This document shows, in pieces, positions 1 through 50,811 of a stretch of 64,000 nucleotides of DNA. The translations under genes and the position numbers were made by a program. How positions within the stretch are numbered: the stretch's first letter is position 1; each line of letters starts with the position of its first letter. Below the pieces are notes generated by a model that was not told where the DNA came from, searched no databases, and saw nothing but the letters and a program-made list of their open reading frames with translations. Source of the DNA: Actinopolyspora halophila DSM 43834 (GTDB lineage Bacteria; Actinomycetota; Actinomycetes; Mycobacteriales; Pseudonocardiaceae); the NCBI RefSeq assembly GCF_000371785.1, contig NZ_AQUI01000002.1, positions 5,133,352 to 5,197,351 of the forward strand. The letters are read 5' to 3'.

Positions 1-2
1 AC

Positions 3-221
3 AGCATCGACCCGAAGGGCGCGGAGATCTTCGTGCAGAACGCCGAGCTGCACACGCACGGATTCGTCACCCCGGATCTCGGCATGGCCGCCTACCGCAA
101 CTCCTGCATCATCCGGGAGATGCTCGGCGAGGAGTACTACCCGATCGAGCGCTCGATCGCCTTCCAGCAGTTCGGCGCTCCCGAACAGCGGAGCCGAGCG
201 GGAGAGGAGCCGGTGGCATGA
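3..221 (+). CDS. desB: Lysine/ornithine N-monooxygenase, C-terminal end (DesB-like)
   Basis: This is the last 72 codons of a gene that begins before the window. The residues (for example [19 protein letters not shown]) match the C-terminal end of the flavin-dependent lysine/ornithine N-hydroxylases (IucD/DesB family), which use FAD, NADPH and O2 to hydroxylate the terminal amine of cadaverine, lysine or ornithine in hydroxamate siderophore synthesis. The flavin and NADPH sites are not in view. Its TGA overlaps the ATG of the acyltransferase gene (ATGA), so the genes are translationally coupled. The substrate is inferred from the DesB-DesC-DesD order, which matches desferrioxamine operons; a lysine substrate cannot be excluded from this fragment. 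Confidence 0.85.
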
Positions 222-805
222 ACGACGTCGTTTTCACCCGCACCGACCCACGACTCGGGGAGTTCGCGGTCCGCCACGTGGACCCGGCCGCGGACGTCGA
301 CCTGCTGCACCGCTGGCTCACCCACCCCAAGTCGGCGTTCTGGCTGATGGGCGAGGCCACGCGGGACGACGTGGCGCGGCAGTTCACCGACGTAGCGGCC
401 ACCCCCGGGCACGACGCGCTGCTGGGCACGCACGACGGGACGCCCGCCTTCGTGATGGAGCGCTACGACCCGGCCGGCAGCGAACTGGCCGATGCGTACC
501 GGGTGCTGCCGGGCGACGTGGGCATGCACTTCCTGGTCGCCCCGACCACGACGCCCCTGCGCGGATTCACCCTCGGCGTGCTGCGCACCGTCATGGAACT
601 GCTGCTGTCCGATCCGGACAACCGGCGCGTGGTCGTCGAGCCCGACGTGCGCAACACCTCCGTGCACCGGCTCAACCGCGCTGTCGGGTTCGAGGAGGTC
701 GAGACCGTGTCCGTGCCGGGCAAGACGGCCCTTCTCAGCACCTGCACCCGCGCCCAGTACCAGGCGACGGTGCCCGCCGAGCACGATCAGGAGGTATCCA
801 GTTGA
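218..805 (+). CDS. desC: GNAT-type siderophore N-acyltransferase (DesC-like)
   Basis: A 195-residue protein of the acyl-CoA N-acyltransferase family used in hydroxamate siderophore synthesis (DesC/RhbD/IucB-like). It would transfer an acetyl or succinyl group from CoA to the N-hydroxylated amine made by the monooxygenase. Recognisable features are the N-terminal [13 protein letters not shown] stretch (about residues 30-42), the central GMHFLVAP strand, and the C-terminal VVVEPDVRN...LNRAVGFE segment (about 139-160), typical of the acetyl-CoA-binding part of these enzymes. The ATG overlaps the upstream stop by 4 nt, and its own stop overlaps the TTG start of the next gene, so three genes form one tightly coupled operon. 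Acyl donor specificity is not readable. Confidence 0.85.
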
Positions 806-2607
806 GCAGCGCAGCAGCACCGCGCGAGGCCGCGGCCCATCTGACACCGCACCACTGGGAGACCGCCAACCGATTACTGGTGCGCAAGGCACTGGCCGAG
901 TTCTCCCACGAACGCCTGCTGGAACCCGCGGAAACCGCGCCGGGGCACTACCGGGTGAGCAGCGACGACGGGCTGGTGGAGTACCACTTCACGGCCGAGA
1001 TGGGGAGCCTGCGGCACTGGCGGGTCGACGCCGACAGCATCACCAGGCACTCCGAGGGCAGCGAGCAGCCGCTCGACGCGCTCGCGCTGTTCCTGGAGTT
1101 CCGCAAGACCCTGGGGCTGCGCACGGAGATGCTGCCCGTCTACCTGGAGGAGATCAGCAGCACGCTGTCCAGCAGCGCGTTCAAGCTGGCCATGCCCGCC
1201 ACGCGCTCGGCGGAACTGCTCGACGCAGGCTTCCAGGCGGTGGAGTCCGGGCTCACCGAGGGGCACCCGTGCTTCGTGGCCAACAGCGGGCGCATCGGGT
1301 TCGACAGCACCGAGTTCACCGCGTACGCGCCGGAGGCCGGGCAGGCGGTCTCCCTGGTCTGGATGGCCGCGCACCGCGACAGGTCCACCTTCACCGTCTC
1401 CTCCGAGACGAGCTACGCGGAGCTGATCTCGTCCGAACTGGACGAGGAGGAGCGGGCCGGGTTCGCCGCCGGGCTGCGCGAGCGCGGGCTCGACCCGGAG
1501 GAGTACCACCTCTTCCCGGTGCACCCGTGGCAGTGGGAGAACAAGCTCTCGGTGACCTTCGCCGCCGAGGTGGCGCGGAACAACCTCGTCCACCTCGGCC
1601 GCGGGACCGACGCGTACCGCCCGCAGCAGTCCGTGCGCACCATGTTCAACGAGAGCTCACCGTCGAAGCACTACGTGAAAACGGCGCTGTCGGTGCTCAA
1701 CATGGGCTTCCTGCGCGGGTTGTCCGCCGAGTACATGAAGGCGACCCCGGCCATCAACGACTGGCTGGCCGGGGTGATCGCGCGTGATCGGCAGCTCGCC
1801 GACTCGGGATTCGACATCCTGCGCGAGCGGGCCGCGATCGGATACCACAACGAGTACTACGAGGCCGCCGGTTCGAAGAGCTCCCCCTACCGCAAGATGC
1901 TGGCCGCGCTCTGGCGGGAGAGCCCCGTGCCGAAGATCCGCTCCGGGCAGCGGCTGGTGAGCATGGCCGCGCTGCTGCACGTGGACCGCTTCGGGGACTC
2001 GGTGCTCGGCGAGCTCGTGTCCCGCTCCGGGCTGGAGCCCGCGGTCTGGCTGCGCCGCTACCTGGACGTCTACCTGCGGCCGCTGCTGCACCTGTTCTAC
2101 GCCCACGACCTGGTGACCATGCCGCACGGCGAGAACATCATCCTCGTGCTGGAGGACGGGGTCCCCGAGGGCGCCCTGCTCAAGGACATCGCCGAGGAGG
2201 TCGCCGTGCTCGACGCCGACGCGGAGCTGCCGCCCGAGGTCGAGCGGATCCGGTCGGTGGTTCCGGAGCACCTGCGCGAGCTGTCCCTGCTCACCGACGT
2301 GTTCGACTGCTTCTTCCGCTTCCTGTGCTCGATCGCCTCCACCGAGGGCGTGCTCAGCGAGGAGGTCTTCTGGAGGACCGTGGCCGAGTGCGTGGCCGAC
2401 TACCAGCGGGACAACCCCGAGCTGCGGGACAAGTTCCGGCGGCACGACCTGTTCACCGAGTGGTTCTCGCTGTCCTGCCTGAACAGGCTGCAGCTCGGCG
2501 ACAACGAGCAGATGGTCGACCTGCAGGACCCGAGCAGCGCGCTCGCCTTCGCCGGGACCCTGTCCAACCCGATCGCGCCCCACGCGCCGGAGCTCGTGCA
2601 GCGGTGA
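802..2607 (+). CDS. desD: NIS siderophore synthetase, IucA/IucC family (DesD-like)
   Basis: A 601-residue ATP-dependent NRPS-independent siderophore synthetase. DesD-type enzymes adenylate a carboxylate and condense or cyclise N-hydroxy-N-acyl diamine units into desferrioxamines. The IucA/IucC core is visible: GHPCFVANSGR around residues 154-164, LFPVHPWQWENKL around 238-250, and SPSKHYVKTALS around 287-298 (ATP site). The C-terminal region resembles the FhuF-like domain fused to these proteins. The TTG start is preceded by AGGAGGT at good spacing and overlaps the desC stop. Length fits DesD (about 590-600 aa). The operon promoter, and presumably an iron box and desA, lie upstream of the window. 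The exact product (B, E or another hydroxamate) is not determinable. Confidence 0.9.
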   Translation: MSSAAAPREAAAHLTPHHWETANRLLVRKALAEFSHERLLEPAETAPGHYRVSSDDGLVEYHFTAEMGSLRHWRVDADSITRHSEGSEQPLDALALFLEFRKTLGLRTEMLPVYLEEISSTLSSSAFKLAMPATRSAELLDAGFQAVESGLTEGHPCFVANSGRIGFDSTEFTAYAPEAGQAVSLVWMAAHRDRSTFTVSSETSYAELISSELDEEERAGFAAGLRERGLDPEEYHLFPVHPWQWENKLSVTFAAEVARNNLVHLGRGTDAYRPQQSVRTMFNESSPSKHYVKTALSVLNMGFLRGLSAEYMKATPAINDWLAGVIARDRQLADSGFDILRERAAIGYHNEYYEAAGSKSSPYRKMLAALWRESPVPKIRSGQRLVSMAALLHVDRFGDSVLGELVSRSGLEPAVWLRRYLDVYLRPLLHLFYAHDLVTMPHGENIILVLEDGVPEGALLKDIAEEVAVLDADAELPPEVERIRSVVPEHLRELSLLTDVFDCFFRFLCSIASTEGVLSEEVFWRTVAECVADYQRDNPELRDKFRRHDLFTEWFSLSCLNRLQLGDNEQMVDLQDPSSALAFAGTLSNPIAPHAPELVQR

Positions 2608-2616
2608 TTCCCGCCC

Positions 2617-2652
2617 GCCGGTGGGATGTTTCGCGTGAAACGTCCCACCGGC
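2617..2652 (+). terminator. Strong hairpin after the des operon, with a parS-like centre
   Basis: Ten bases after the desD stop lies a 16-bp stem (one T:G wobble) around a GCGT loop, with no T-run. Position and stability suit a transcription terminator of the desBCD operon. The centre, GTTTCGCGTGAAAC, differs from the ParB-binding parS core GTTTCACGTGAAAC at one base; see findings. Confidence 0.65.
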
Positions 2653-2800
2653 AGCGTCCGGGGTGGGGGCATGGCACGCGACTAAGGACGCTGCTTGGGA
2701 GGTTCGAGTCGCGCGAACAGCGTGATAGGTGCGGACATGTCGGACACACTCCTTTCACAGTGTTCGAATATTTCGGTTTTCTGGTCCTGACCAGGAAGGA

Positions 2801-4039
2801 TCAGGGCCAGAAGATCACGACACGGGTGTGGTTCCTGTCGAGCACGAACCCGTGATTCATCCGCTCATCGGGGGTGTGGGCGGGGTGGACCTCGATGACG
2901 GCGCCGGGGCCGTGGCGGTGTTGCCGGTCCCACTGGCGCATCAGGTCGACGTACTGCTCGGCGAGTTCGGCGCCGCGAGGGCCGTGGCCGTGTACGCCGA
3001 GTTCGTGCCGCTCGTCCTCGGTGGTGCGCACCGTGGCGCGGTAGGCGAAGCTGTCCCCGTCAACCGCTGCCGGAACTCCCCGGCGGGCGGGGCGGCCCAC
3101 GAGCCCGCGATCGATGGCGGCTTGTTTCGCGGTCAACATGCCGCAGCCGGGCAGCGTGGTCGTCAGCCACAGGGTCAGGTCGTCGATCATTTCCCGGGAA
3201 CCGATGGTGATTCCCGACCACCGCTCTTCAGGGGGTGTGGTCAGCGCCTCGCTGAGCCCGGCGATGTTGAGACGTCGCTGCTCGTCGAACCGCAACCCCA
3301 CGTCCGCGTCGAGTAGCGCCACGTGCTCCTCGCGGGCACCCGCGCCCTGCATCGGCACGAACCCGCACGGGTGCACGCTTCGGCTGGTCAGCCGGTCGTC
3401 CGCGCGTTCCAGCGCGATCGACCGCATTACCCCCTGCAACCGAAGAGGGACGATCAGCCAGCCGCCCTCGACGAGCTGATCCAACCAGGCGGGCGGAATG
3501 TCCCACACCCCGACGGTGACCAGGATCCGGTCGTAGGGCGCCTGGTCGGCCACGCCGTGTTCAGCGTCGGCGCAGACCACCCGCACCTGGTCGTATCCGG
3601 ACTCGGACAGTCCGCGCCGGGCGCGCTCGGTCACGTCCGCGTCGATGTCGACCGTGGTCACGTGCCCCTCCGCGCCGACGAGTTCGGCGAGCATCGCAGC
3701 GTTGACCCCACCGGATCCGATCTCCAGCACGCGCATACCGGGCTGGACCTCGGTCTGCTCCAGCATGTTGGCCTGCATACTGGGAGCCGACACGGTCGAC
3801 AGCGCCATCCCGTCGTCGTCCCGTTTGACCACCACCGACCGGTTGACCCCGTACGCCTCCATCAGCGGTGCCTCCGGGGAGAACAGATGCCGGGGCACCA
3901 CCCGGAAAGCCCGCTCGACCGGATCGCTGCGCAGTGCGCCCATCTGGCGCAGTTCCTCGGCCATGGCCGCACGCAGAGCACCGGGCTGCGCGCTGTCCTC
4001 CGCAGTACCCTCATCAGCCATGTCACGTTCTACATCCAT
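2801..4039 (-). CDS. PIMT-like SAM methyltransferase, FxLD/RiPP-associated type
   Basis: A 412-residue methyltransferase related to protein-L-isoaspartate O-methyltransferase. The PIMT-type stretch STVSAPSMQANMLEQ (about residues 81-95) is followed by SAM motif I VLEIGSGG (about 104-111) and TVDID. The roughly 200-residue C-terminal extension ending in RVVIFWP is what I know from actinobacterial 'methyltransferase, FxLD system' proteins, whose relatives convert Asp to isoaspartate or aspartimide in ribosomal peptides (OlvSA, ThfM, imiditide enzymes). I chose the ATG preceded by GAAAGAGGT; an in-frame GTG ten codons upstream has no ribosome site. It is the last gene of a minus-strand operon of three small zinc-finger-like proteins. 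No lanthipeptide dehydratase, cyclase or ATP-grasp gene is nearby, so it is an orphan of its class. Substrate unknown. Confidence 0.75.
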   Translation of the reverse strand: MDVERDMADEGTAEDSAQPGALRAAMAEELRQMGALRSDPVERAFRVVPRHLFSPEAPLMEAYGVNRSVVVKRDDDGMALSTVSAPSMQANMLEQTEVQPGMRVLEIGSGGVNAAMLAELVGAEGHVTTVDIDADVTERARRGLSESGYDQVRVVCADAEHGVADQAPYDRILVTVGVWDIPPAWLDQLVEGGWLIVPLRLQGVMRSIALERADDRLTSRSVHPCGFVPMQGAGAREEHVALLDADVGLRFDEQRRLNIAGLSEALTTPPEERWSGITIGSREMIDDLTLWLTTTLPGCGMLTAKQAAIDRGLVGRPARRGVPAAVDGDSFAYRATVRTTEDERHELGVHGHGPRGAELAEQYVDLMRQWDRQHRHGPGAVIEVHPAHTPDERMNHGFVLDRNHTRVVIFWP

Positions 4040-4086
4040 GTGGATACCTCTTTCACGTCTTTGCAGCACCGAACCCGGTCGGCCAT
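4030..4086 (-). CDS. Possible 18-aa leader peptide overlapping the methyltransferase start
   Basis: A short frame starting at ATG with an excellent ribosome site (AAGGGGAT seven bases upstream) encodes 18 residues, including a CC pair, and stops 10 nt inside the methyltransferase gene in another frame. Third-position GC is about 72 percent. It could be a translational-coupling leader that delivers ribosomes to the methyltransferase start, or chance. Nothing in it looks like a known RiPP precursor. It is too short to judge by homology. Confidence 0.35.
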   Translation of the reverse strand: MADRVRCCKDVKEVSTWM

Positions 4087-4252
4087 TGCTAATCCCCTTC
4101 TATTTCCTTTCGGACAAAGCTCGGAGGGTTCTGGAGGACCGCCCGGTACGTCGCTGGGGCCGGGCGGGCACGGGTACACGCGCTGGTCGGGGATTCGCGG
4201 CACGCGTCCGGGTTCTGGGGTCTGGTCAGGTCGCCCGGCGGGGCCCGTAGCG

Positions 4253-4798
4253 CTACGCCGCGGGCCGGAGCTCCGCCGGATAGCGGCTGGCGGGTTCCGC
4301 TCGTGTGTGCAGCGCGGTCGCCGTGGTCGGCTCGCCGGTGTCCGGGTCGAAATCCGGCCACTGGGGACCTGACTCGTCAGTCACTCGTGGGAGGCGTCTG
4401 CGCAGCACCGCGCGCGGCGGGAGGTAGCCGACCGCGTGCAGGCACGGCCCGCACACCGACCGGTGCCGCTGCTCCGGCGGGTCGTAACCGGTGCTGCGCT
4501 CGTGCAGGCCGCGCACGGTGCGCCCGCAGGCACCGAGCACGGACGCGGAACCAGGGCCGACCACGACCTCGCAGGCGTGCCACTGGGCCTCGCCCTCGCC
4601 CGCGATCCACGTCCGGTCGGCCACCAGTCCGCGTGGTCGCGGGATCTCCGCCGTGACAGCGGCGGCATCGCCGGCCACGCCAGCCCCGCTGCCAGCAGCG
4701 GAATCCACACAGGCCCCCGGGGCGACTCGGACGACACCGCTATCGGCCCGTATCCAACGGAGAAAAGCAACCAAGATGGACAGAATCAGAGTGATCAT
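4253..4798 (-). CDS. Small HA/CG/CxxC protein with N-terminal membrane segment
   Basis: A 181-residue protein I cannot name. It starts with a hydrophobic helix (LILSILVAFL, residues 4-13) followed by an Ala/Gly-rich linker. The core carries H74-A75, then C91-G92, then C116-G-P-C119, a possible zinc site made of one His and three Cys. The same HA...CG...CxxC pattern occurs in the two genes immediately upstream, so the three appear to be divergent paralogues; this copy has gained a membrane anchor and a longer tail. It lies third in a minus-strand operon ending in the FxLD-type methyltransferase. Small Cys-containing 'zinc finger' proteins of this kind are common in actinomycetes near XRE/DUF397 genes and peptide maturation genes, but no activity is established. 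Confidence 0.6.
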   Translation of the reverse strand: MITLILSILVAFLRWIRADSGVVRVAPGACVDSAAGSGAGVAGDAAAVTAEIPRPRGLVADRTWIAGEGEAQWHACEVVVGPGSASVLGACGRTVRGLHERSTGYDPPEQRHRSVCGPCLHAVGYLPPRAVLRRRLPRVTDESGPQWPDFDPDTGEPTTATALHTRAEPASRYPAELRPAA

Positions 4799-4862
4799 GC
4801 GTTCCGGTCCAGATCGTTGAACGGGGAACCGACCGTCGCGCGGAGCGTGGCGAGCCGCTCTC

Positions 4863-5135
4863 TCAGCTCGTCACGAGCCACGACGGGTACGGCTCCCTGA
4901 GATCGTTGCGCAGGTCAGCGATGCCGGCGCGCGTCATCAGGCACGGCCCGCAGTAGCCGTGCCGGGAGAAATCCATCAGCACGGGCGGGTGCGGCGCGAG
5001 AGCGATCCACGCGCCGCACAGGCACAGCACCCAGCCGTGTCGGAAATCAGCGGCCAGGCGGGAACTCGTGGCATGAATCCAGCCGGAGCCCCACCCCAGC
5101 ACGAAACGCGCCTGCCCAGCAGCGCGCGAACTCAC
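4863..5135 (-). CDS. Small HA/CG/CxxC zinc-finger-like protein
   Basis: A 90-residue protein of unknown function. H21-A22, C40-G41 and C62-G-P-C65 follow the same order and similar spacing as in its two operon neighbours, suggesting a compact HCCC metal site. It has no signal peptide or membrane helix. Its GTG start overlaps the upstream gene's TGA (GTGA), so the two are translationally coupled and probably made in similar amounts. A gap of about 64 bp separates it from the membrane-anchored paralogue downstream. Inference: a small regulatory or scaffold protein belonging with the methyltransferase operon. Confidence 0.6.
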   Translation of the reverse strand: MSSRAAGQARFVLGWGSGWIHATSSRLAADFRHGWVLCLCGAWIALAPHPPVLMDFSRHGYCGPCLMTRAGIADLRNDLREPYPSWLVTS

Positions 5136-5458
5136 CCGGATTCCAGGAGGACACGGCGGTAGCCGTGCTCGCGAGCCATCGCGTCACAGTGCTCGCAGTC
5201 GATCATCGCGTCCGCGGTGCTCACCCCCGCCGCACCCTGCTGGGGAATGGTCGGAAACGGCACGATCATCGACGTGCCGCACAACGCGCGGAGCTGCGTG
5301 CGCACCTGATGCCTGCTCGGGTGCTCCCGCAGCGCGTGCCGCCGCCCGTCCGGCGGCCACTGCTGCGGCACCACCACCAGAAACACCACGTTCGCGTCTT
5401 GCTCGGGTCCCCGGAACGTGTCCTCACCGGTTGTCCCGCAGAACTCAGGCGGTAGCAT
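5132..5458 (-). CDS. Small HA/CG/CxxC zinc-finger-like protein, first gene of operon
   Basis: A 108-residue protein of unknown function and the first gene of the minus-strand operon. It contains H41-A42, C60-G61 and C88-E-H-C91, the same arrangement as the two downstream paralogues. The start is uncertain: three in-frame starts (5473 GTG, 5464 ATG, 5458 ATG) occur together, and I chose 5458 because AGGAG lies seven bases before it. It is divergent from the XRE regulator gene across a 336-bp spacer, which suggests that regulator may control it. Confidence 0.6.
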   Translation of the reverse strand: MLPPEFCGTTGEDTFRGPEQDANVVFLVVVPQQWPPDGRRHALREHPSRHQVRTQLRALCGTSMIVPFPTIPQQGAAGVSTADAMIDCEHCDAMAREHGYRRVLLESG

Positions 5459-5794
5459 GACCATGCTCCTCACTCAGAAATTGACTGGTTGGAGCCCTCC
5501 CCGCGTGCTACTTGGCGGTGGAACGCGGGAAAGACTGCTCGTCCGGTGGTTGCCGCCACCGGACGAGCGGTTCACACATCGACGGACGTGCTTGCCGTGA
5601 CGTCCACTACGGCAAGAGCAGTCACATCCTCATCCCCTGCTCCTCGATGCGTTCTTAGTGGACTGTATTACAGGAACGTTCCTATAACAACGTTCTTCTA
5701 AATTTGTTCGCAATGTGCACCCAAACGGAGGAACGTGCGTGTAGCACGGAGGCAATTGGATAGAGTCGCCGCAGGGACCACCGGAGGTGACACA
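5459..5794. promoter_or_regulatory. Divergent control region between zinc-finger operon and XRE gene
   Basis: This 336-bp spacer holds two perfect hairpins (12-bp arms at 5538-5567; 8-bp arms CTTGCCGT/ACGGCAAG at 5591-5616). An AT-richer stretch at 5655-5710 contains the palindrome GGAACGTTCC (5673-5682), and a second AACGTTC follows about ten bases later. The paired AACGTTC sites are plausible operators for the adjacent XRE protein, but that is inference. No clear -35/-10 pair could be assigned. Confidence 0.45.
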
Positions 5795-6646
5795 GTGGCC
5801 AAGAAGCCGGGACCGAGTGTTCGTCGCCGTCAGCTCGGCGCGATGCTGCGCCAACTGTGGCAAGAGGCGGGTACGAGCCGTAAGGATGCGGCCGAATGGC
5901 TGGAGATTGGCGAACCAACGTTGAGCAAGATCGAGCTGGGACGCCAAGCCATCAAAGGGCCGCACGTCAGATTGCTGTGTCAGCTCTACGATGTGGATTC
6001 TTCCACGGTGGACACGCTGCTTCGCTTGGCACGCGAAGCCAATCAAAGAGGCTGGTGGACTGCCTACCGCAACACGGTGCCCTCGTGGTTTCGACACTAC
6101 GTCGGTTTGGAAAGCGACGCTGCGGACATCTGGGCGTACGAAGCGGAGTTCGTTCCAGGACTACTCCAGACCACCGAGTACACCAGGGCAATTACCCGTG
6201 CCTCCCGCCCCGAGATCAGTGACGAAGAACTGGACAAGGAAATCGCCGTTCGACGAGAACGCCAGACTCGTCTGCACGACGAGCATCCACCACGTCTCCA
6301 CCTGATCGTCAACGAAGCCGTCGTACGACGCCAGGTGGGCGGTTCCGAAGTGATGAGCGAACAGCTCGAACACCTGCTCCGCTCATCGAAGCTCGATCAC
6401 ATCTCGCTCCGGGCGTTGCCGTTCTCCGCAGGCGCACACGCCGCCATGACCGGATCGTTCATCATGATCAGATTCCCTGACGAGGACACCCCCGCCTTCG
6501 TCTATCTCGAGAACGACCGCGGCGGGATTTACCAAGAGGATCCCGGAGACATCAAGCGCTATAGCCTGGTGAGGGACCAGCTCACGAGATTGGCTTACAG
6601 TGAGGAAGACACTCGCGAGCTACTTAAGCAGCTGGTCCCAGCTTGA
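5795..6646 (+). CDS. XRE-family regulator with DUF5753 domain (WhiJ-like)
   Basis: A 283-residue regulator. Residues about 10-65 form an XRE/Cro-type helix-turn-helix (RQLGAMLRQLWQEAGTSRKDAA...EPTLSKIELG). The rest, from about WWTAYRNTVPSWF to the end, is the DUF5753 domain typical of actinomycete regulators paired with DUF397 proteins, as in WhiJ and AbaA-type developmental loci of Streptomyces. The GTG start follows GGAGGTGAC at ideal spacing; an upstream ATG (5735) lacks one. It precedes a DUF397 gene by 25 bp and diverges from the zinc-finger/methyltransferase operon. By analogy the DUF397 partner modulates DNA binding, often as part of a repressor module. The target genes here are inferred from position only. 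Confidence 0.85.
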   Translation: MAKKPGPSVRRRQLGAMLRQLWQEAGTSRKDAAEWLEIGEPTLSKIELGRQAIKGPHVRLLCQLYDVDSSTVDTLLRLAREANQRGWWTAYRNTVPSWFRHYVGLESDAADIWAYEAEFVPGLLQTTEYTRAITRASRPEISDEELDKEIAVRRERQTRLHDEHPPRLHLIVNEAVVRRQVGGSEVMSEQLEHLLRSSKLDHISLRALPFSAGAHAAMTGSFIMIRFPDEDTPAFVYLENDRGGIYQEDPGDIKRYSLVRDQLTRLAYSEEDTRELLKQLVPA

Positions 6647-6671
6647 CGTACGCACCTGGAAAGGGAACGGA

Positions 6672-6881
6672 ATGGCTCCGGACGATCTTGCGAACGCTGC
6701 GTGGCGTAAGAGCAGCCGAAGCAGCGGTAACGGCGGTGCCTGCGTTGAAGTGGGGATCGCGCCTTCCGCTGCTGGAGTACGCGACACGAAACTGGGCGAG
6801 GAAAGCCCCACCCTCGCGTTCACACGTTCGCAGTGGGGCTCCTTCCTCGACGCGATCAAAAGCGACCGCCTCGACGACTGA
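6672..6881 (+). CDS. DUF397 small protein
   Basis: A 69-residue DUF397 protein with the family hallmarks WRKSSRSSGNGGACVEV near the N-terminus (about 10-24) and FTRSQWGSFLDAIK near the C-terminus. DUF397 proteins are co-encoded with DUF5753 XRE regulators and are thought to bind or relieve them. I chose the ATG preceded by GGAAAGGGAACGGA; an upstream in-frame start would overlap the regulator gene. A strong hairpin terminator follows immediately. Confidence 0.85.
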   Translation: MAPDDLANAAWRKSSRSSGNGGACVEVGIAPSAAGVRDTKLGEESPTLAFTRSQWGSFLDAIKSDRLDD

Positions 6882-6892
6882 CCCCGCTTCGC

Positions 6893-6927
6893 GAAGTCCC
6901 GCTCGGTGCGCCACCGGGCGGGACTTC
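6893..6927 (+). terminator. Terminator of the XRE/DUF397 operon
   Basis: Perfect 10-bp arms GAAGTCCCGC/GCGGGACTTC around a 15-nt loop, 11 bases after the DUF397 stop. This separates the regulator pair from the small genes downstream. Confidence 0.7.
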
Positions 6928-7162
6928 TCGTGGCGCGCCGCCGTGCCGAACGGTTCGGAGCCCGACTGCTGGAAAGCACCGATCGCTTCAGACGAGCACG
7001 GACTTCACTGAATCAACTCACCCGTCACGAAGCCCGAACCACAGCAGGCAGTACAACGAACTGACGATGCGATCACCGACCGGCAGACGCATCACGAACA
7101 TGCTACCTGGATGGACCGGCATACCTGATGTGGTCAGTTGAAAAACAAGGAGCTATGTTGCG

Positions 7163-7309
7163 ATGCCGATCGCAACTTCGAACGCTAAGCACGGTGCCTC
7201 GACGCAGCATGCCTCCGGAAAAGACGCCGGGACGCTGGCCACCGCCGTCGGAATAGCCGCCGGTCCAGGGGCGGCCGCCATCGCGGCTTCTTTCGGCCTG
7301 ATCGGGTAG
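7163..7309 (+). CDS. 48-aa Gly/Ala-rich hydrophobic peptide
   Basis: A very small gene. The N-terminal third is polar (HGASTQHASGKDAG) and the C-terminal half is a hydrophobic Ala/Gly helix ending in SFGLIG. AAGGAG lies ten bases before the ATG; third-position GC is about 73 percent. It has no Cys. The shape resembles small membrane-active peptides such as class II bacteriocin-like or type I toxin-like peptides, but I recognise no family. It is followed after 6 bp by a 31-aa gene and then a two-TM protein, giving a compact small-gene operon downstream of the XRE/DUF397 pair. Confidence 0.5.
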   Translation: MPIATSNAKHGASTQHASGKDAGTLATAVGIAAGPGAAAIAASFGLIG

Positions 7310-7315
7310 CTGATC

Positions 7316-7411
7316 ATGTCATGCGAGCACGAGAACGGCTGGACCTACATACACTTGATCGGAATGCCACCCTTCACGCCCGGCGGCGTCGTATGCAATT
7401 CCTTCGGCTGA
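7316..7411 (+). CDS. 31-aa two-cysteine peptide
   Basis: A 31-residue frame with C3 and C27, aromatic residues (GWTYIHLIG) and a PFTPGGVVC segment. Its third-position GC is 25 of 31, whereas the competing frame over the same bases (a possible upstream extension of the next gene) has about half, so this frame is the better coding candidate. The TGA overlaps the next ATG (TGATG). There is no obvious ribosome site; translation may depend on coupling with the 48-aa gene 6 bp upstream. The two Cys could form a disulfide or be modified. Function unknown. Confidence 0.4.
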   Translation: MSCEHENGWTYIHLIGMPPFTPGGVVCNSFG

Positions 7412-7626
7412 TGCCACAGGACAGGACCACGAAACCGTCCGTCAGACAACGGATCACACTGGCCGGCGTGCTCTGTCTGGCCGGAGGCGTCGTCGCTATG
7501 GCGGTGCTCCAGCTGACGGAGGTGATCGACAGGATGAACACGCTCATCACCGTCTTCTTCCTGTTCACCACCTTCGTCGGAGTCGGCGCATCCCTCGGCT
7601 GGTTGCCCGAACGTCCCGGACGATGA
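7411..7626 (+). CDS. Small two-TM membrane protein
   Basis: A 71-residue protein with two hydrophobic helices (about residues 17-35, LAGVLCLAGGVVAMAVL, and about 45-63, LITVFFLFTTFVGVG) and basic termini. Its ATG overlaps the stop of the 31-aa gene (TGATG), indicating translational coupling. Longer in-frame starts at 7321 and 7393 exist, but codon use in that extension is poor. Position after two tiny peptides suggests an immunity or partner protein, which is inference. I recognise no family. Confidence 0.6.
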   Translation: MPQDRTTKPSVRQRITLAGVLCLAGGVVAMAVLQLTEVIDRMNTLITVFFLFTTFVGVGASLGWLPERPGR

Positions 7627-7681
7627 AAAACCCGAGGGCGCATCGTGCTCTCCTGTACCGCCTCGTCGGGGATGCTCGCTG

Positions 7682-7740
7682 AGCGGAACCTCTCGCGGGC
7701 TCTCGCTGCGAGTTGCCCCGACATCGGCCAGTAACGATCA
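7682..7740 (+). repeat. Half copy of the class 1 intergenic palindrome
   Basis: Left half of the class 1 repeat (GCGGAACCTCTCGCGGGC onward), diverging after CCCCGACATCGG. It sits 3' of the 71-aa gene in the same orientation. Confidence 0.7.
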
Positions 7741-7832
7741 CATCGGAGCGAGCGGACACAGCGGAGCCCACTGTGGCCGGACCAACCGGTCCGCGGGCGC
7801 ACCGGAACGACTCCGAGCAGCGGACCGGCCCG

Positions 7833-8816
7833 TCAGTGACGGCCCTCGCGCCAGTACCCCATGAAGGCCACCGAGGTGCGCGGAACCCCGTACTGGTTGA
7901 CCGTCATCCTGCGCAGACGCTTGATCACCCCGGCCTCACCGGCGAGCCAGCCGTAGAGCTCACCGCTTTCCACGTCGACGCGCTCCCGCGCCGGGGCCTC
8001 CGGGACCTCCCAGAGCGGGCAGCTGTCCACGTCCACGTCCTCCAGGGACGCGGAGCGGGACGAGGCGAGCTCGTCCGGCTCCCCGTGTCCGCCGCACAAC
8101 TCCCGCAGCGCCTCGTCCAGGGCGCCCTCCAGCAGCGAGCCGTGCTCCCGCGCGCTGGCCGCGTTCCTGGGAAGCCACCGGACCTCCACCCCGCTCGGAA
8201 CCTCCCAGTCCTGGACGTCGTCCTCGGTCGGGATCTCCAGGCAGGCGATGCCGCACGCTCCCGCGGGCAGGGACTCGAGGATGGCCCCCACCGCGGGGAT
8301 GGCGGTCTCGTCCCCGGCCAGCAGCAACCGCCGGGCCGTGGCGGGCGGGCACCACTCGCACCCCCACATGCGCCCGGTTCCGGGGCGGTCCGGTCCGAGC
8401 AACGCCACCCGGTCCCCCGGTCGGGCGGAAGCGGCCCAGTTGGACGCGGGCCCTCCCGAGTCCTCCTCGGACCCGTGCAGCACGAAGTCGATGTCGATCT
8501 CCGCCCGGGACGGGCGGAAGGCACGCACCGTGTAGGTCCGCATCGTGGGCCGCGTCTCCTCCGGCATCGCCTGCCACTCGGCGTACCAGTCCCGGCCCAT
8601 CGGGACGTCGGCGACGGTCCGTCCCGGTTGGGGCAGCATCAGCTTGATGCGCTGGTCGGCCCCGCCCGCCCCGAAGGCACGCAGGCACTCGCCCGCGACC
8701 GTCACGCGCACGAAACTCGGGCTCAACCGCTTCCGAGCGACCACCTCGACGGTGTAGACCCGGTACTCGGGCTTCTGCTCGTTACGCCGAGCCGTGTGTT
8801 CGAGCGCAGTGGTCAT
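7833..8816 (-). CDS. Siderophore-interacting protein (ferric-siderophore reductase, SIP family)
   Basis: A 327-residue flavoprotein of the ViuB/SIP family, which releases iron from imported ferric siderophores in the cytoplasm by reduction. The FAD-binding barrel is seen in RTYTVR (residues 93-98) and GPASNWA (122-128). The C-terminal half has the NAD(P)-type LLLAGDETAIPAVGAILESLP. Good ribosome site AAGGGGAG before the ATG. An IdeR/DmdR-like iron box lies about 115 bp upstream, so expression is expected only under iron limitation. It may process the desferrioxamine-type siderophore made by the operon at the left edge; no permease is adjacent. Confidence 0.88.
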   Translation of the reverse strand: MTTALEHTARRNEQKPEYRVYTVEVVARKRLSPSFVRVTVAGECLRAFGAGGADQRIKLMLPQPGRTVADVPMGRDWYAEWQAMPEETRPTMRTYTVRAFRPSRAEIDIDFVLHGSEEDSGGPASNWAASARPGDRVALLGPDRPGTGRMWGCEWCPPATARRLLLAGDETAIPAVGAILESLPAGACGIACLEIPTEDDVQDWEVPSGVEVRWLPRNAASAREHGSLLEGALDEALRELCGGHGEPDELASSRSASLEDVDVDSCPLWEVPEAPARERVDVESGELYGWLAGEAGVIKRLRRMTVNQYGVPRTSVAFMGYWREGRH

Positions 8817-8930
8817 GGGCTCTCCCCTTCTCGCACGAGCGGGCTTATGAAGATTCGCGATGCGGTTGTCCCGGGTGGCCGAACAACCGAACGAACCACC
8901 CGATCGAGCTCTACCGATCCGATCTACGGG

Positions 8931-8949
8931 TAAGGTTAGCCTATACTTA
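8931..8949. promoter_or_regulatory. IdeR/DmdR iron box
   Basis: TAAGGTTAGCCTATACTTA matches the actinobacterial iron-box consensus TTAGGTTAGGCTAACCTAA at 14 of 19 positions. It lies upstream of the siderophore-interacting protein gene (minus strand), where iron-loaded DtxR-family repressor would block transcription. Both sides of the spacer 8817-9110 could be affected. Confidence 0.7.
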
Positions 8950-9110
8950 AGCTTCTGACGACAGTAGTACAGGAGGCGTCACGTCACAGCCGGACGAGAC
9001 GTACTCGGCCCGGCCGGGTAACCACCCCGGACCCGTCGGGAACCACGCGCGGGTTCGGCGCGTCCCAGGTACGAACGACCAACGACGGCTACGACGGGAG
9101 TGCTCGCCTC

Positions 9111-9824
9111 ATGTACGTGGAGGACACCGGTTCCGGCGACGGCGACATCCGCATCGACGTGGACGGCGCGGAGTACACCGCCGAGGCCAACTACGACCTG
9201 GACGGGAACGGGGTGGACGAGACCGTGGCCGTGCTCACCGACGACGGCTACCTCGCCTACACCGACTCGGACTCCGACGGCGAGGCCGACGTCATGCGCT
9301 CCGTCGACGAGCGGGGCAACGTCGTGGAACGCGCTCGTTTCGACGAGGCCTCCGGGGGGTGGGTGCCCGAGCGACCCGGCGGTTCGGCCGATCCGGACCC
9401 GCGGGACGACGCCGCGGGACGACCGATGGTGGTGGACACTCCCCGGGGCGACCGGGAGGTGGGGCCTCCGACCGAGGACACCAACAACGACGGCAGGCCG
9501 GACACGACGATCGTCGACACCGACGGCGGGCAGATGCTGGTCACCGATGTGAACGGGGACGGAGCCGCGGACCAGATGGTCCGGATCAACGACTCCGGCG
9601 AGGTGACCGTCGCCAAGCACACCGGTGACGGCGAGTGGACCGTGGTCGACCAGGGCCGCTTCGACGGCAGCGGGCAGCACGCCTCCGGGCGGACGGAGAC
9701 CCCGGTCACCGGCGCCGAGGACTGGCTGTGGGAGCCCAACGAGCACGCGGAGTCGAAGTCGTCGGCGCACCGGAACCCGGACACCGGGAAAACCGACCCG
9801 GCGAGCGACTCCTTCTGGGGCTGA
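9111..9824 (+). CDS. Asp-rich calcium-loop repeat protein (DUF6802-like)
   Basis: A 237-residue acidic protein of the DUF6802 type found in Pseudonocardiales. It contains at least four D-x-[DN]-x-[DN]-G-x-x-D loops (DLDGNGVDE, DSDSDGEAD, DTNNDGRPD, DVNGDGAAD), the pattern of EF-hand-like or FG-GAP calcium-binding repeats, separated by short beta-prone segments. No signal peptide is seen. The C-terminal part contains EDWLWEPN and ends in SFWG. Role unknown; structural calcium binding is inferred. Monocistronic. Confidence 0.7.
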   Translation: MYVEDTGSGDGDIRIDVDGAEYTAEANYDLDGNGVDETVAVLTDDGYLAYTDSDSDGEADVMRSVDERGNVVERARFDEASGGWVPERPGGSADPDPRDDAAGRPMVVDTPRGDREVGPPTEDTNNDGRPDTTIVDTDGGQMLVTDVNGDGAADQMVRINDSGEVTVAKHTGDGEWTVVDQGRFDGSGQHASGRTETPVTGAEDWLWEPNEHAESKSSAHRNPDTGKTDPASDSFWG

Positions 9825-10242
9825 GCACGAGCTGCCCCGAAGTGTTCGTGAATACGATTACCGCCCGCCCGACATCACCAAACCTCGAGAACAAAAATGT
9901 GACCCGAAACACAGCAGAATTCGGTTGAAACGCTCCGCGAAGCGGAGGCCCGAACCGGTCGCATCCCGGATGGGCCGGAAAACATGGCGCGAAAGCGGGC
10001 AACGACACGCGAATTTCGCGGATCCCGCTCAACTGAATCGATTCCCTTATCGTTCCTGTGAGGGAAGCGACAACGCTGATCTCCGTAAACGCAGGCCCAT
10101 CCGGTTAGTCTCGGTGCATCCACTTCGCAGCTCCGCCCGGAAATTCCGGGCGGAGCGATGCATTCCTTGAAAGCGCCGTCGGCCGGTGCGCCGACGGAAC
10201 GAAGAATCCGGGCTGAGGCGCCCAGTCAGGAGACACGACGCG
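9825..10242. other. 418-bp spacer upstream of pckG with two hairpins
   Basis: Contains a near-perfect 13-bp-arm hairpin at 10130-10156 (GCTCCGCCCGGAA/TTCCGGGCGGAGC) and a second at 10176-10197 (CCGTCGG/CCGACGG). These lie in the probable 5' leader of pckG or terminate upstream transcription. No promoter could be assigned with confidence. Confidence 0.5.
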
Positions 10243-50593: not shown

Positions 50594-50811
50594 TCACGCC
50601 GGGCAACCTCACCCAGGCGGCTGAGTGCCCGGTGGGCGGGCCGGATCGTCACCCGCTGTTGAACGTTTCGCGCGAAACGCTCTTCCCGGAATCGTTCCGG
50701 AGTGACGGCTTCGCGCGAAACGTTCCGAGGTTCCCAGCTCGTCCCTTCGGCGTTCCCGACGCCGAAACACACCAACCGAGCACCCGGGCGGACCGAGCCG
50801 TGAACCTTCGA
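50594..50811. other. Spacer with GTTTCGCGCGAAAC palindromes
   Basis: Contains the perfect palindrome GTTTCGCGCGAAAC (50665-50678), a second partial copy CTTCGCGCGAAACG (50709-50722), and a TTCGGCGTTCCCGACGCCGAA hairpin (about 50750-50770) just after the DUF3151 stop. See findings for comparison with parS. Confidence 0.5.

What the first reader, a model, noticed from the sequence alone, without database searches (positions are those of the whole stretch)
2801..6881. Three tandem HA/CG/CxxC mini-proteins plus an orphan FxLD-type methyltransferase, divergent from an XRE/DUF397 switch
Seen: three adjacent minus-strand genes (108, 90, 181 aa) share H-A, then C-G, then C-x-x-C in the same order with spacers of 15-18 and 20-26 residues, although the rest of their sequence differs; the first two are coupled by GTGA and the third has gained a membrane helix. 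The operon ends in a PIMT-like methyltransferase of the class that modifies ribosomal peptides. A WhiJ-type regulator pair faces it across a spacer with hairpins and AACGTTC repeats. Known: PIMT homologues act on RiPPs in FxLD lanthipeptide, graspetide and imiditide systems. Inference: this could be a self-contained peptide or protein modification module in which one of the zinc-finger-like proteins, or a small gene nearby, is the methyltransferase substrate.
Basis: partly seen in the sequence, partly recalled or inferred. Interest (0 to 1): 0.75.

Follow-up and report, generated by a model that had tools for sequence, protein, structure and literature searches.

The report
Zinc-finger cassette beside orphan lanthipeptide methyltransferase
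Three tiny zinc-finger genes belong to a repeated, switch-controlled gene cassette found across the salt-loving actinomycete genus Actinopolyspora, and the methyltransferase next to them is a leftover from a lost peptide-antibiotic pathway rather than their partner.

Summary
The sequence observation holds. The proposed modification module does not.

The methyltransferase is a firm FxLD (LanSA-type) lanthipeptide enzyme (545.9 bits, cut-off 320). A same-genus relative keeps the whole pathway behind similar zinc-finger genes. In the window the precursor is cut after about 7 codons and no dehydratase or cyclase follows, yet the enzyme gene shows purifying selection.

A-B-C belongs to a recurrent cassette (leader, A' or A, B, C, small membrane protein) facing a WhiJ/BldB-type XRE-DUF397 switch: 29 loci in 9 of 10 genomes searched. 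The methyltransferase, whole or broken, adjoins 6 of 29.

Unexpected:
- 23 of 29 cassettes share a hairpin leader.
- Switch and cassette are exchanged independently; in 8 of 10 pairs tested similarity begins within 12 nt of hairpin 1. The spacer palindrome GGAACGTTCC occurs only in the two loci sharing this XRE type.
- zf-HC3 genes, the family nearest to A, adjoin XRE genes in 20 of 30 loci elsewhere.

Most likely this is a variant WhiJ/BldB locus with zinc-finger outputs and a relic methyltransferase. The biochemical role of the cassette is inferred.

The parts
2682..2738 (-). Relic of the FxLD lanthipeptide precursor: ribosome-binding site (near 2750-2756) and first ~7 codons kept, then unrelated sequence to a stop (MSAPITLFARLEPPKQRP*)
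   Evidence: Alignment with the orthologous loci L063 and L064; same truncation in L117; coordinates
2801..4039 (-). FxLD-system (LanSA/PIMT-type) O-methyltransferase, 412 aa (ATG at 4039; a GTG at 4069 is possible)
   Evidence: TIGR04364 545.9 bits, cut-off 320; PCMT Pfam; orthologues 89-97% identical
4253..4798 (-). C: 181-aa CHCC zinc-finger-like protein with N-terminal hydrophobic helix; core 4394-4627
   Evidence: Family alignment A7, H/C/C/C invariant in 15 of 15 aligned; core model pLDDT 84.6, pTM 0.73
4863..5135 (-). B: 90-aa CHCC zinc-finger-like protein (most relatives have an extra C-terminal stretch)
   Evidence: Family alignment A6, H/C/C/C invariant in 14 of 14 aligned; model poor, pLDDT 45.8
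5132..5458 (-). A: 108-aa zf-HC3-like zinc-finger protein
   Evidence: PF16827 23.1 bits, just under the 25 cut-off; alignment with 25 zf-HC3-type proteins, W/R/H/C/C/C invariant
5465..5496 (-). Leader hairpin H3, the least certain: CTCC can pair with the GGAG Shine-Dalgarno of the first gene
   Evidence: CTCC and GGAG present in 23 of 23 leaders; window fold; coordinates
5493..5536 (-). Leader hairpin H2 (loop found in either orientation among relatives)
5537..5568 (-). Leader hairpin H1 (13-bp arms), within ~30 bp of the junction between switch and cassette
   Evidence: switch exchange
5674..5701 (.). AACGTTC-type repeats including GGAACGTTCC, candidate XRE operator (binding inferred)
   Evidence: palindrome found only in window and L123, the two of 29 loci with this XRE type
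5795..6646 (+). WhiJ-type XRE regulator (HTH_31 plus DUF5753)
   Evidence: 86% identical to the XRE of another cassette (L123) but 33% to that of the 97% methyltransferase orthologue L117
6672..6881 (+). BldB-type DUF397 protein
   Evidence: 69.2 bits, cut-off 24

Best explanation
This is a WhiJ/BldB-type switch (XRE plus DUF397) facing an output operon of small CHCC zinc-finger proteins (A, B, C), with a relic lanthipeptide methyltransferase at the operon's 3' end. Shown by sequence: the operon is one copy of a cassette repeated across Actinopolyspora; it has a conserved hairpin leader; switches and cassettes have been exchanged between loci; the methyltransferase belongs to an FxLD lanthipeptide cluster whose precursor, dehydratase and cyclase are not here. 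Inferred: the XRE protein binds repeats in the spacer and controls the operon, DUF397 tunes it, and the leader adds control at the ribosome-binding site of the first gene. Also inferred: the zinc-finger proteins, with C anchored in the membrane and, in other copies, a small membrane partner, are developmental or metabolic regulators, in the position that AbaA and IosA hold in Streptomyces. The methyltransferase is probably co-transcribed but has no local substrate; it is either idle or acts in trans.
For: Methyltransferase family. FxLD cluster behind a cassette in L064. Shared precursor truncation in window and L117. Broken methyltransferase in L120 and L125. 13 nonsynonymous of 31 changes between window and L117 against an assumed 75% if neutral, p 9e-5. 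Cassette at 29 loci in 9 of 10 genomes, all 29 with XRE and DUF397 matches on the opposite side. Leader in 23 of 29. Switch exchange. The palindrome GGAACGTTCC occurs in the spacer of window and L123, which share the XRE type, and in 0 of the other 27. zf-HC3 genes next to XRE in 20 of 30 loci, 18 of these divergent, against 7 of 107 control tiles. Precedent: WhiJ9 binds repeats in the divergent spacer and mediates activation of iosA (PMC10294661; abstract, first part of Results, section on WhiJ9 binding, passages).
Against: No experiment links the XRE to the repeats. B and C match no known family, and profile comparison with zf-HC3 is weak (probability about 10%). The 25-26 codon frame in the leader of A'-type copies shows no protein-like pattern of change. 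H3 has no compensating changes. The A-B-C order without A' is seen only in the window and L117 among the 29. The methyltransferase is conserved although orphaned, which the relic view alone does not explain. XRE genes are also fairly common near FxLD-methyltransferase genes (6 of 27 loci), so some linkage of the two may be ordinary.
Confidence: 0.72

Rival explanations
1. The first reader's module: the methyltransferase modifies one of the zinc-finger proteins.
For: Tight gene order A-B-C-methyltransferase, also in L117; purifying selection on the orphan enzyme; PIMT homologues that act on otherwise unmodified peptides exist (PMC13001092 and PMC10787088, passages).
Against: No methyltransferase match near 23 of 29 cassettes; no zinc-finger profile match in 18 of 20 methyltransferase neighbourhoods; no Asp among the invariant columns of B or C (A' has one); an FxLD precursor follows the orthologous enzyme in L064.
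Confidence: 0.06
2. The orphan methyltransferase serves in trans on another FxLD peptide of the same genome, for example the cluster at C2:3.584-3.601 Mb.
For: That cluster has precursor, LanB and LanC homologues; the orphan enzyme is under purifying selection.
Against: The other cluster has its own FxLD methyltransferase, 41% identical.
Confidence: 0.2
3. XRE-DUF397 plus the zinc-finger cassette is a toxin-antitoxin-like or anti-phage element.
For: Multi-copy, presence/absence at one site, exchange of parts; XRE-DUF397 pairs have been proposed as type II toxin-antitoxin systems (PMC10364602 and PMC6262351, titles and abstract starts).
Against: The same titles and abstract starts describe these pairs as regulators of antibiotic production and differentiation in Streptomyces; A, B and C matched no toxin model in Pfam or NCBIfam. 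The PADLOC library was not scanned.
Confidence: 0.12

Closest known systems
WhiJ-BldB-AbaA/IosA loci of Streptomyces (XRE plus DUF397 and a neighbouring output gene)
   Same: XRE regulator with DUF397 beside it, output gene transcribed away from it, repeats in the spacer, many paralogous copies per genome (PMC10294661, sections and passages; PMC4255298, passages)
   Different: The output is a set of small zinc-finger proteins plus, in most copies, a membrane protein, instead of AbaA (antisigma-like) or IosA; there is a conserved hairpin leader; switch and output are exchanged between loci
FxLD class I lanthipeptide clusters with LanSA/OlvSA-type methyltransferase (TIGR04364, TIGR04363)
   Same: The window enzyme is a full-length family member; relatives L064 and the own-genome cluster L082 have precursor, LanB and LanC homologues
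   Different: In the window only the methyltransferase and the start of the precursor remain
zf-HC3 (PF16827), including the solved structure 3rms/3rmq (Svir_20580, Saccharomonospora viridis)
   Same: A shares the W..RHA..LCG..CxxC pattern; the alignment of A with zf-HC3-type proteins matches 3rms at E 8.8e-14

Membership tests
FxLD methyltransferase (TIGR04364) | Full-length profile match above curated cut-off | tested here: met
   545.9 bits, cut-off 320, profile 2-394 of 394
FxLD lanthipeptide biosynthetic cluster | FxLD precursor peptide next to the methyltransferase | tested here: not met
   Only ribosome-binding site and ~7 codons remain
FxLD lanthipeptide biosynthetic cluster | LanB dehydratase and LanC cyclase genes nearby | tested here: not met
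   tblastn placement of LanB/LanC found none in window 1-10000; siderophore genes follow; homologues present in L064 and L082
WhiJ/BldB-type locus | XRE regulator with DUF5753 followed by DUF397 | tested here: met
WhiJ/BldB-type locus | Divergent output gene with repeats in the shared spacer | tested here: met
   that the repeats bind XRE was not tested
WhiJ/BldB-type locus | Output gene is AbaA-like (antisigma-type) or IosA | tested here: inconclusive
   A, B and C match no Pfam or NCBIfam model apart from zf-HC3 for A; AbaA and IosA were not compared by sequence
zf-HC3 (PF16827): protein A | Profile score over the gathering cut-off | tested here: not met
   23.1 against 25 bits
zf-HC3-like zinc finger: protein A | Invariant W, R, H, C, C, C of the aligned proteins | tested here: met
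   26 of 26 aligned sequences including A; 5 of the 30 fetched zf-HC3 loci were left out of this alignment
zf-HC3: proteins B and C | Profile match | tested here: inconclusive
   No Pfam hit; hhalign probability 10-11%, P about 0.003; weak fold match of C to 3rms
Imiditide/pamtide (PIMT plus otherwise unmodified precursor) | Conserved Asp-containing substrate linked to the methyltransferase | tested here: not met
   Linkage of the zinc-finger genes to the enzyme at 6 of 29 cassette loci only; no invariant Asp in B or C
Zinc-binding protein | Bound metal | not testable with these tools
   Only the invariant His/Cys pattern was seen

The most novel reading that the evidence does not exclude
The cassette (hairpin leader, A' or A, B, C, membrane protein) is a plug-in output unit that is exchanged as a block between WhiJ/BldB-type switches, each switch bringing its own operator. 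Hairpin 1 marks the cassette's left end and the recombination junction, and the leader adds post-transcriptional control. With zf-HC3 genes elsewhere in the family, this makes small CHCC zinc-finger proteins a widespread further output class of the WhiJ/BldB network.
Probability: 0.4. Interest if true: 0.75.

Novelty: new variant of a known kind. Interest (0 to 1): 0.55.

Why it matters
WhiJ/BldB-type switches are strongly multiplied in mycelial actinomycetes, yet what they switch is known in only a few cases. A defined, repeated zinc-finger output with a shared hairpin leader makes that question directly testable, and the exchange of switches in front of one cassette offers a natural experiment in rewiring regulation. 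The relic methyltransferase is also a caution for RiPP genome mining: a conserved orphan tailoring enzyme need not have its substrate next door.

Tried and rejected
Rejected: the zinc-finger proteins as methyltransferase substrates. Rejected: C's membrane helix as a start-site artefact. A second overlapping frame in L063 looked better at first, but most C homologues begin with a hydrophobic stretch. Not supported: the 25-26 codon frame in the leader as a translated peptide. Changes fall 658, 620 and 508 on codon positions 1 to 3 in the 14 frames of 25 codons.

Limits: one search tested 10 of the 32 pairs with C at least 80% and XRE under 70% identical. The 210 pairs are not independent. In the reverse class (like switches, unlike cassettes; 5 pairs) no common sharp edge is seen: two run on into the cassette. 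The 29 loci are my union: 26 C places plus 3 places with B only; 3 B fragments of at most 108 nt were left out. In one search only 150 of up to 257 candidates per genome were scored, so counts may be low.
Full report
What is there. The window lies in a 5.35 Mb genome in two contigs; same-genus relatives with named records are Actinopolyspora. On the minus strand lie A (108 aa), B (90 aa), C (181 aa) and a methyltransferase; on the plus strand, an XRE regulator with DUF5753 and a DUF397 protein. The His and the three Cys are invariant in 14 of 14 aligned B and 15 of 15 aligned C sequences. A', an additional relative in other cassettes, keeps H, C and CxxC in 11 of 11. Not every copy is intact: the B of L099 is truncated and lacks CxxC.

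The methyltransferase. It is a full-length FxLD-system enzyme (TIGR04364, 545.9 bits). Of 150 genomes of the family, 63 have a match at E up to 1e-40. Of the 20 neighbourhoods fetched, 17 have LanB and LanC homologues beside it; L063, L072 and L080 do not. In L064, an orthologue of the window gene (about 90% identical), the order is zinc-finger cassette, membrane protein, methyltransferase, precursor (TIGR04363, 50.7 bits), LanB homologue, LanC homologue, and a further thiopeptide-type protein. In L063 only the start of the precursor remains. In the window and in L117 (97% identical methyltransferase) the precursor breaks off after about 7 codons, at the same place, and siderophore genes follow. 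In L120 the enzyme is frameshifted and in L125 truncated. Between window and L117, which share the deletion, 13 of 31 substitutions are nonsynonymous against an assumed 75% if neutral (p 9e-5), so the orphan gene has stayed under selection. Published work says the characterised lanthipeptide enzyme of this kind acts only after dehydratase and cyclase (PMC13001092, passages).

The cassette. Profile searches of the 10 held genomes of the genus found C at 26 places and B at 29 places, in 9 of 10 genomes each. Their union, without three short B fragments, is 29 loci, 1 to 6 per genome. On the fetched stretches all 29 have XRE and DUF397 matches on the opposite side, and 20 of 29 have the small membrane protein. 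The XRE matches of L098 are broken and about 2 kb away. The window copy lacks A' and the membrane gene and has A instead. A methyltransferase match, whole or broken, lies beside 6 of 29. A scan of the 20 methyltransferase neighbourhoods found zinc-finger profile matches only in L063 and L064. A genome-contig scan with the C alignment returned 14 loci, all Actinopolyspora. In the family-wide search with B, 15 of 150 genomes matched at E up to 0.01: 6 from the genus, one clear match outside it (G005, E 1.5e-7), and eight weak ones (E 0.005 to 0.009).

The leader. Upstream of the first gene, 21 of 29 cassettes carry a hairpin by a simple rule, and 23 of 29 by a relaxed pattern and a covariance model. 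H1 has 13-bp arms with changes on both sides at three pairs; H2 and H3 have none on the machine alignment. The loop of H2 appears inverted in five copies. CTCC and GGAG, the halves of H3, are present in 23 of 23. Four leaders folded alone (window, L091, L097, L088) give z-scores of -6.2, -5.6, -2.5 and -4.3. The Shine-Dalgarno is paired in the window, L097 and L088, not always with the same partner, and only in part in L091, so H3 is the least certain. An exact H1 pattern search found it in 9 of 10 genomes, with no match to the reversed control pattern. With the covariance model, matches of 77 bits or more (18) occur only in the genus, among 150 genomes. Both an RNA hairpin and a DNA palindrome would give such covariation, and the score is modest. 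A 25-26 codon frame between leader and A' is open in 18 of 18 A'-type leaders but does not change like a protein.

Exchange of switch and cassette. The window's A, B, C and methyltransferase are 82-97% identical to L117, but its XRE is 33% identical to that of L117 and 86% to that of L123, whose cassette differs. The palindrome GGAACGTTCC occurs within 600 nt upstream of the first zinc-finger gene in the window (once) and L123 (twice) and in 0 of the other 27 loci, so the candidate operator travels with the switch. Over 21 loci (210 pairs), identity of XRE and of C is uncorrelated to slightly negative (Spearman -0.15). Of 36 pairs with C at least 80% identical, 4 have XRE at least 70% identical. 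Of 13 pairs with XRE at least 70%, 4 have C under 60%. In 10 pairs with like cassettes and unlike switches, DNA similarity begins 3-12 nt upstream of H1 in 8, and at 29 and 79 nt in the other two. In 5 pairs with like switches and unlike cassettes no common edge is seen, as the cassettes are themselves related. On the right, similarity ends within about 55 nt of the stop of the membrane-protein gene in the nine pairs where both stops were printed. One site occupied by switch plus cassette in five fetched loci (L084, L085, L087, L093, L124; the right flank of L093 is rearranged) has the flanking genes about 35 bp apart in G151. Four other genomes have an unrelated gene there. No flanking direct repeats were found, so neither the mechanism nor the direction (gain or loss) is known.

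Mechanism. In Streptomyces venezuelae, WhiJ9 binds direct repeats between iosA and whiJ9 and mediates iosA activation seen when BldB is lost, and overproduced IosA blocks sporulation (PMC10294661; abstract, first part of Results, section on WhiJ9 binding, passages). The window has the same layout with zinc-finger outputs. I infer the same logic: XRE acts on the spacer repeats, DUF397 modulates, and the zinc-finger proteins are the output. What they do biochemically is unknown. C's hydrophobic helix and the membrane partner suggest a membrane-associated complex.

Literature. Searches of the held library for 'Actinopolyspora' with 'zinc finger', 'zf-HC3' and 'DUF397' with 'zinc finger' returned no paper. 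'DUF397' with 'XRE' returned 14; of these I read sections and passages of PMC10294661 and searched PMC10364602 for zinc, divergent and like terms without hits. Most subscription journals are not in that library, so this is weak evidence of novelty.

Verdict. The locus is a variant WhiJ/BldB-type switch with a repeated zinc-finger cassette, carrying the relic of a lanthipeptide pathway.

Noticed in passing
L117 5267-6510 (-): On the far side of DUF397 in the closest orthologous locus lies a second PIMT-type gene, nearest to the graspetide-system methyltransferase model (TIGR04188, 299.7 bits, under its cut-off of 380), with a 40-aa Asp-rich ORF upstream that matches no family; a possible peptide-methyltransferase pair of its own.
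   Followed up: partly
window 2628-2643: A parS-like palindrome (TGTTTCGCGTGAAACG) between the siderophore gene and the methyltransferase; a related TTTC.CG.GAAA match lies at 50666. The parS consensus is recalled, not from a call.
   Followed up: no
window 7163-7309 (+): A 48-aa Gly/Ala-rich ORF downstream of DUF397 with no family match.
   Followed up: partly
window 5501-7250: The XRE-DUF397 stretch has lower G+C (about 0.59-0.63) than its surroundings (about 0.67-0.75), in line with exchange of the switch.
   Followed up: partly
L082 (own genome C2:3584287-3601483): A second FxLD cluster with XRE, DUF397, precursor, LanB, LanC and methyltransferase; two short ORFs there fit an H..CG..CxxC pattern by regular expression, but the profile scan did not detect them.
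   Followed up: partly
L083, L089, L097 downstream of the cassette: Genes that look like radical SAM enzymes (by their CxxxCxxC stretches, not by family search) follow the cassette at three loci, a hint of other peptide-maturation cargo.
   Followed up: no
L083, L086, L090, L097, L118, L123: A recurrent 118-141 aa gene (MRPLPA...) lies downstream of six cassettes; not identified.
   Followed up: no
L085, L088, L089, L093, L123 leaders: The loop of hairpin H2 (GCCGNCAAGCA) appears as its reverse complement in these five of 23 leaders.
   Followed up: partly
G038:C7:246-366 and G038:C16:253961-254053: Two further leader elements lie at contig ends, probably parts of a cassette split by the assembly.
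   Followed up: no
L124 4562-4803: Fragments of A' and B beside an intact cassette, a decayed extra copy.
   Followed up: partly
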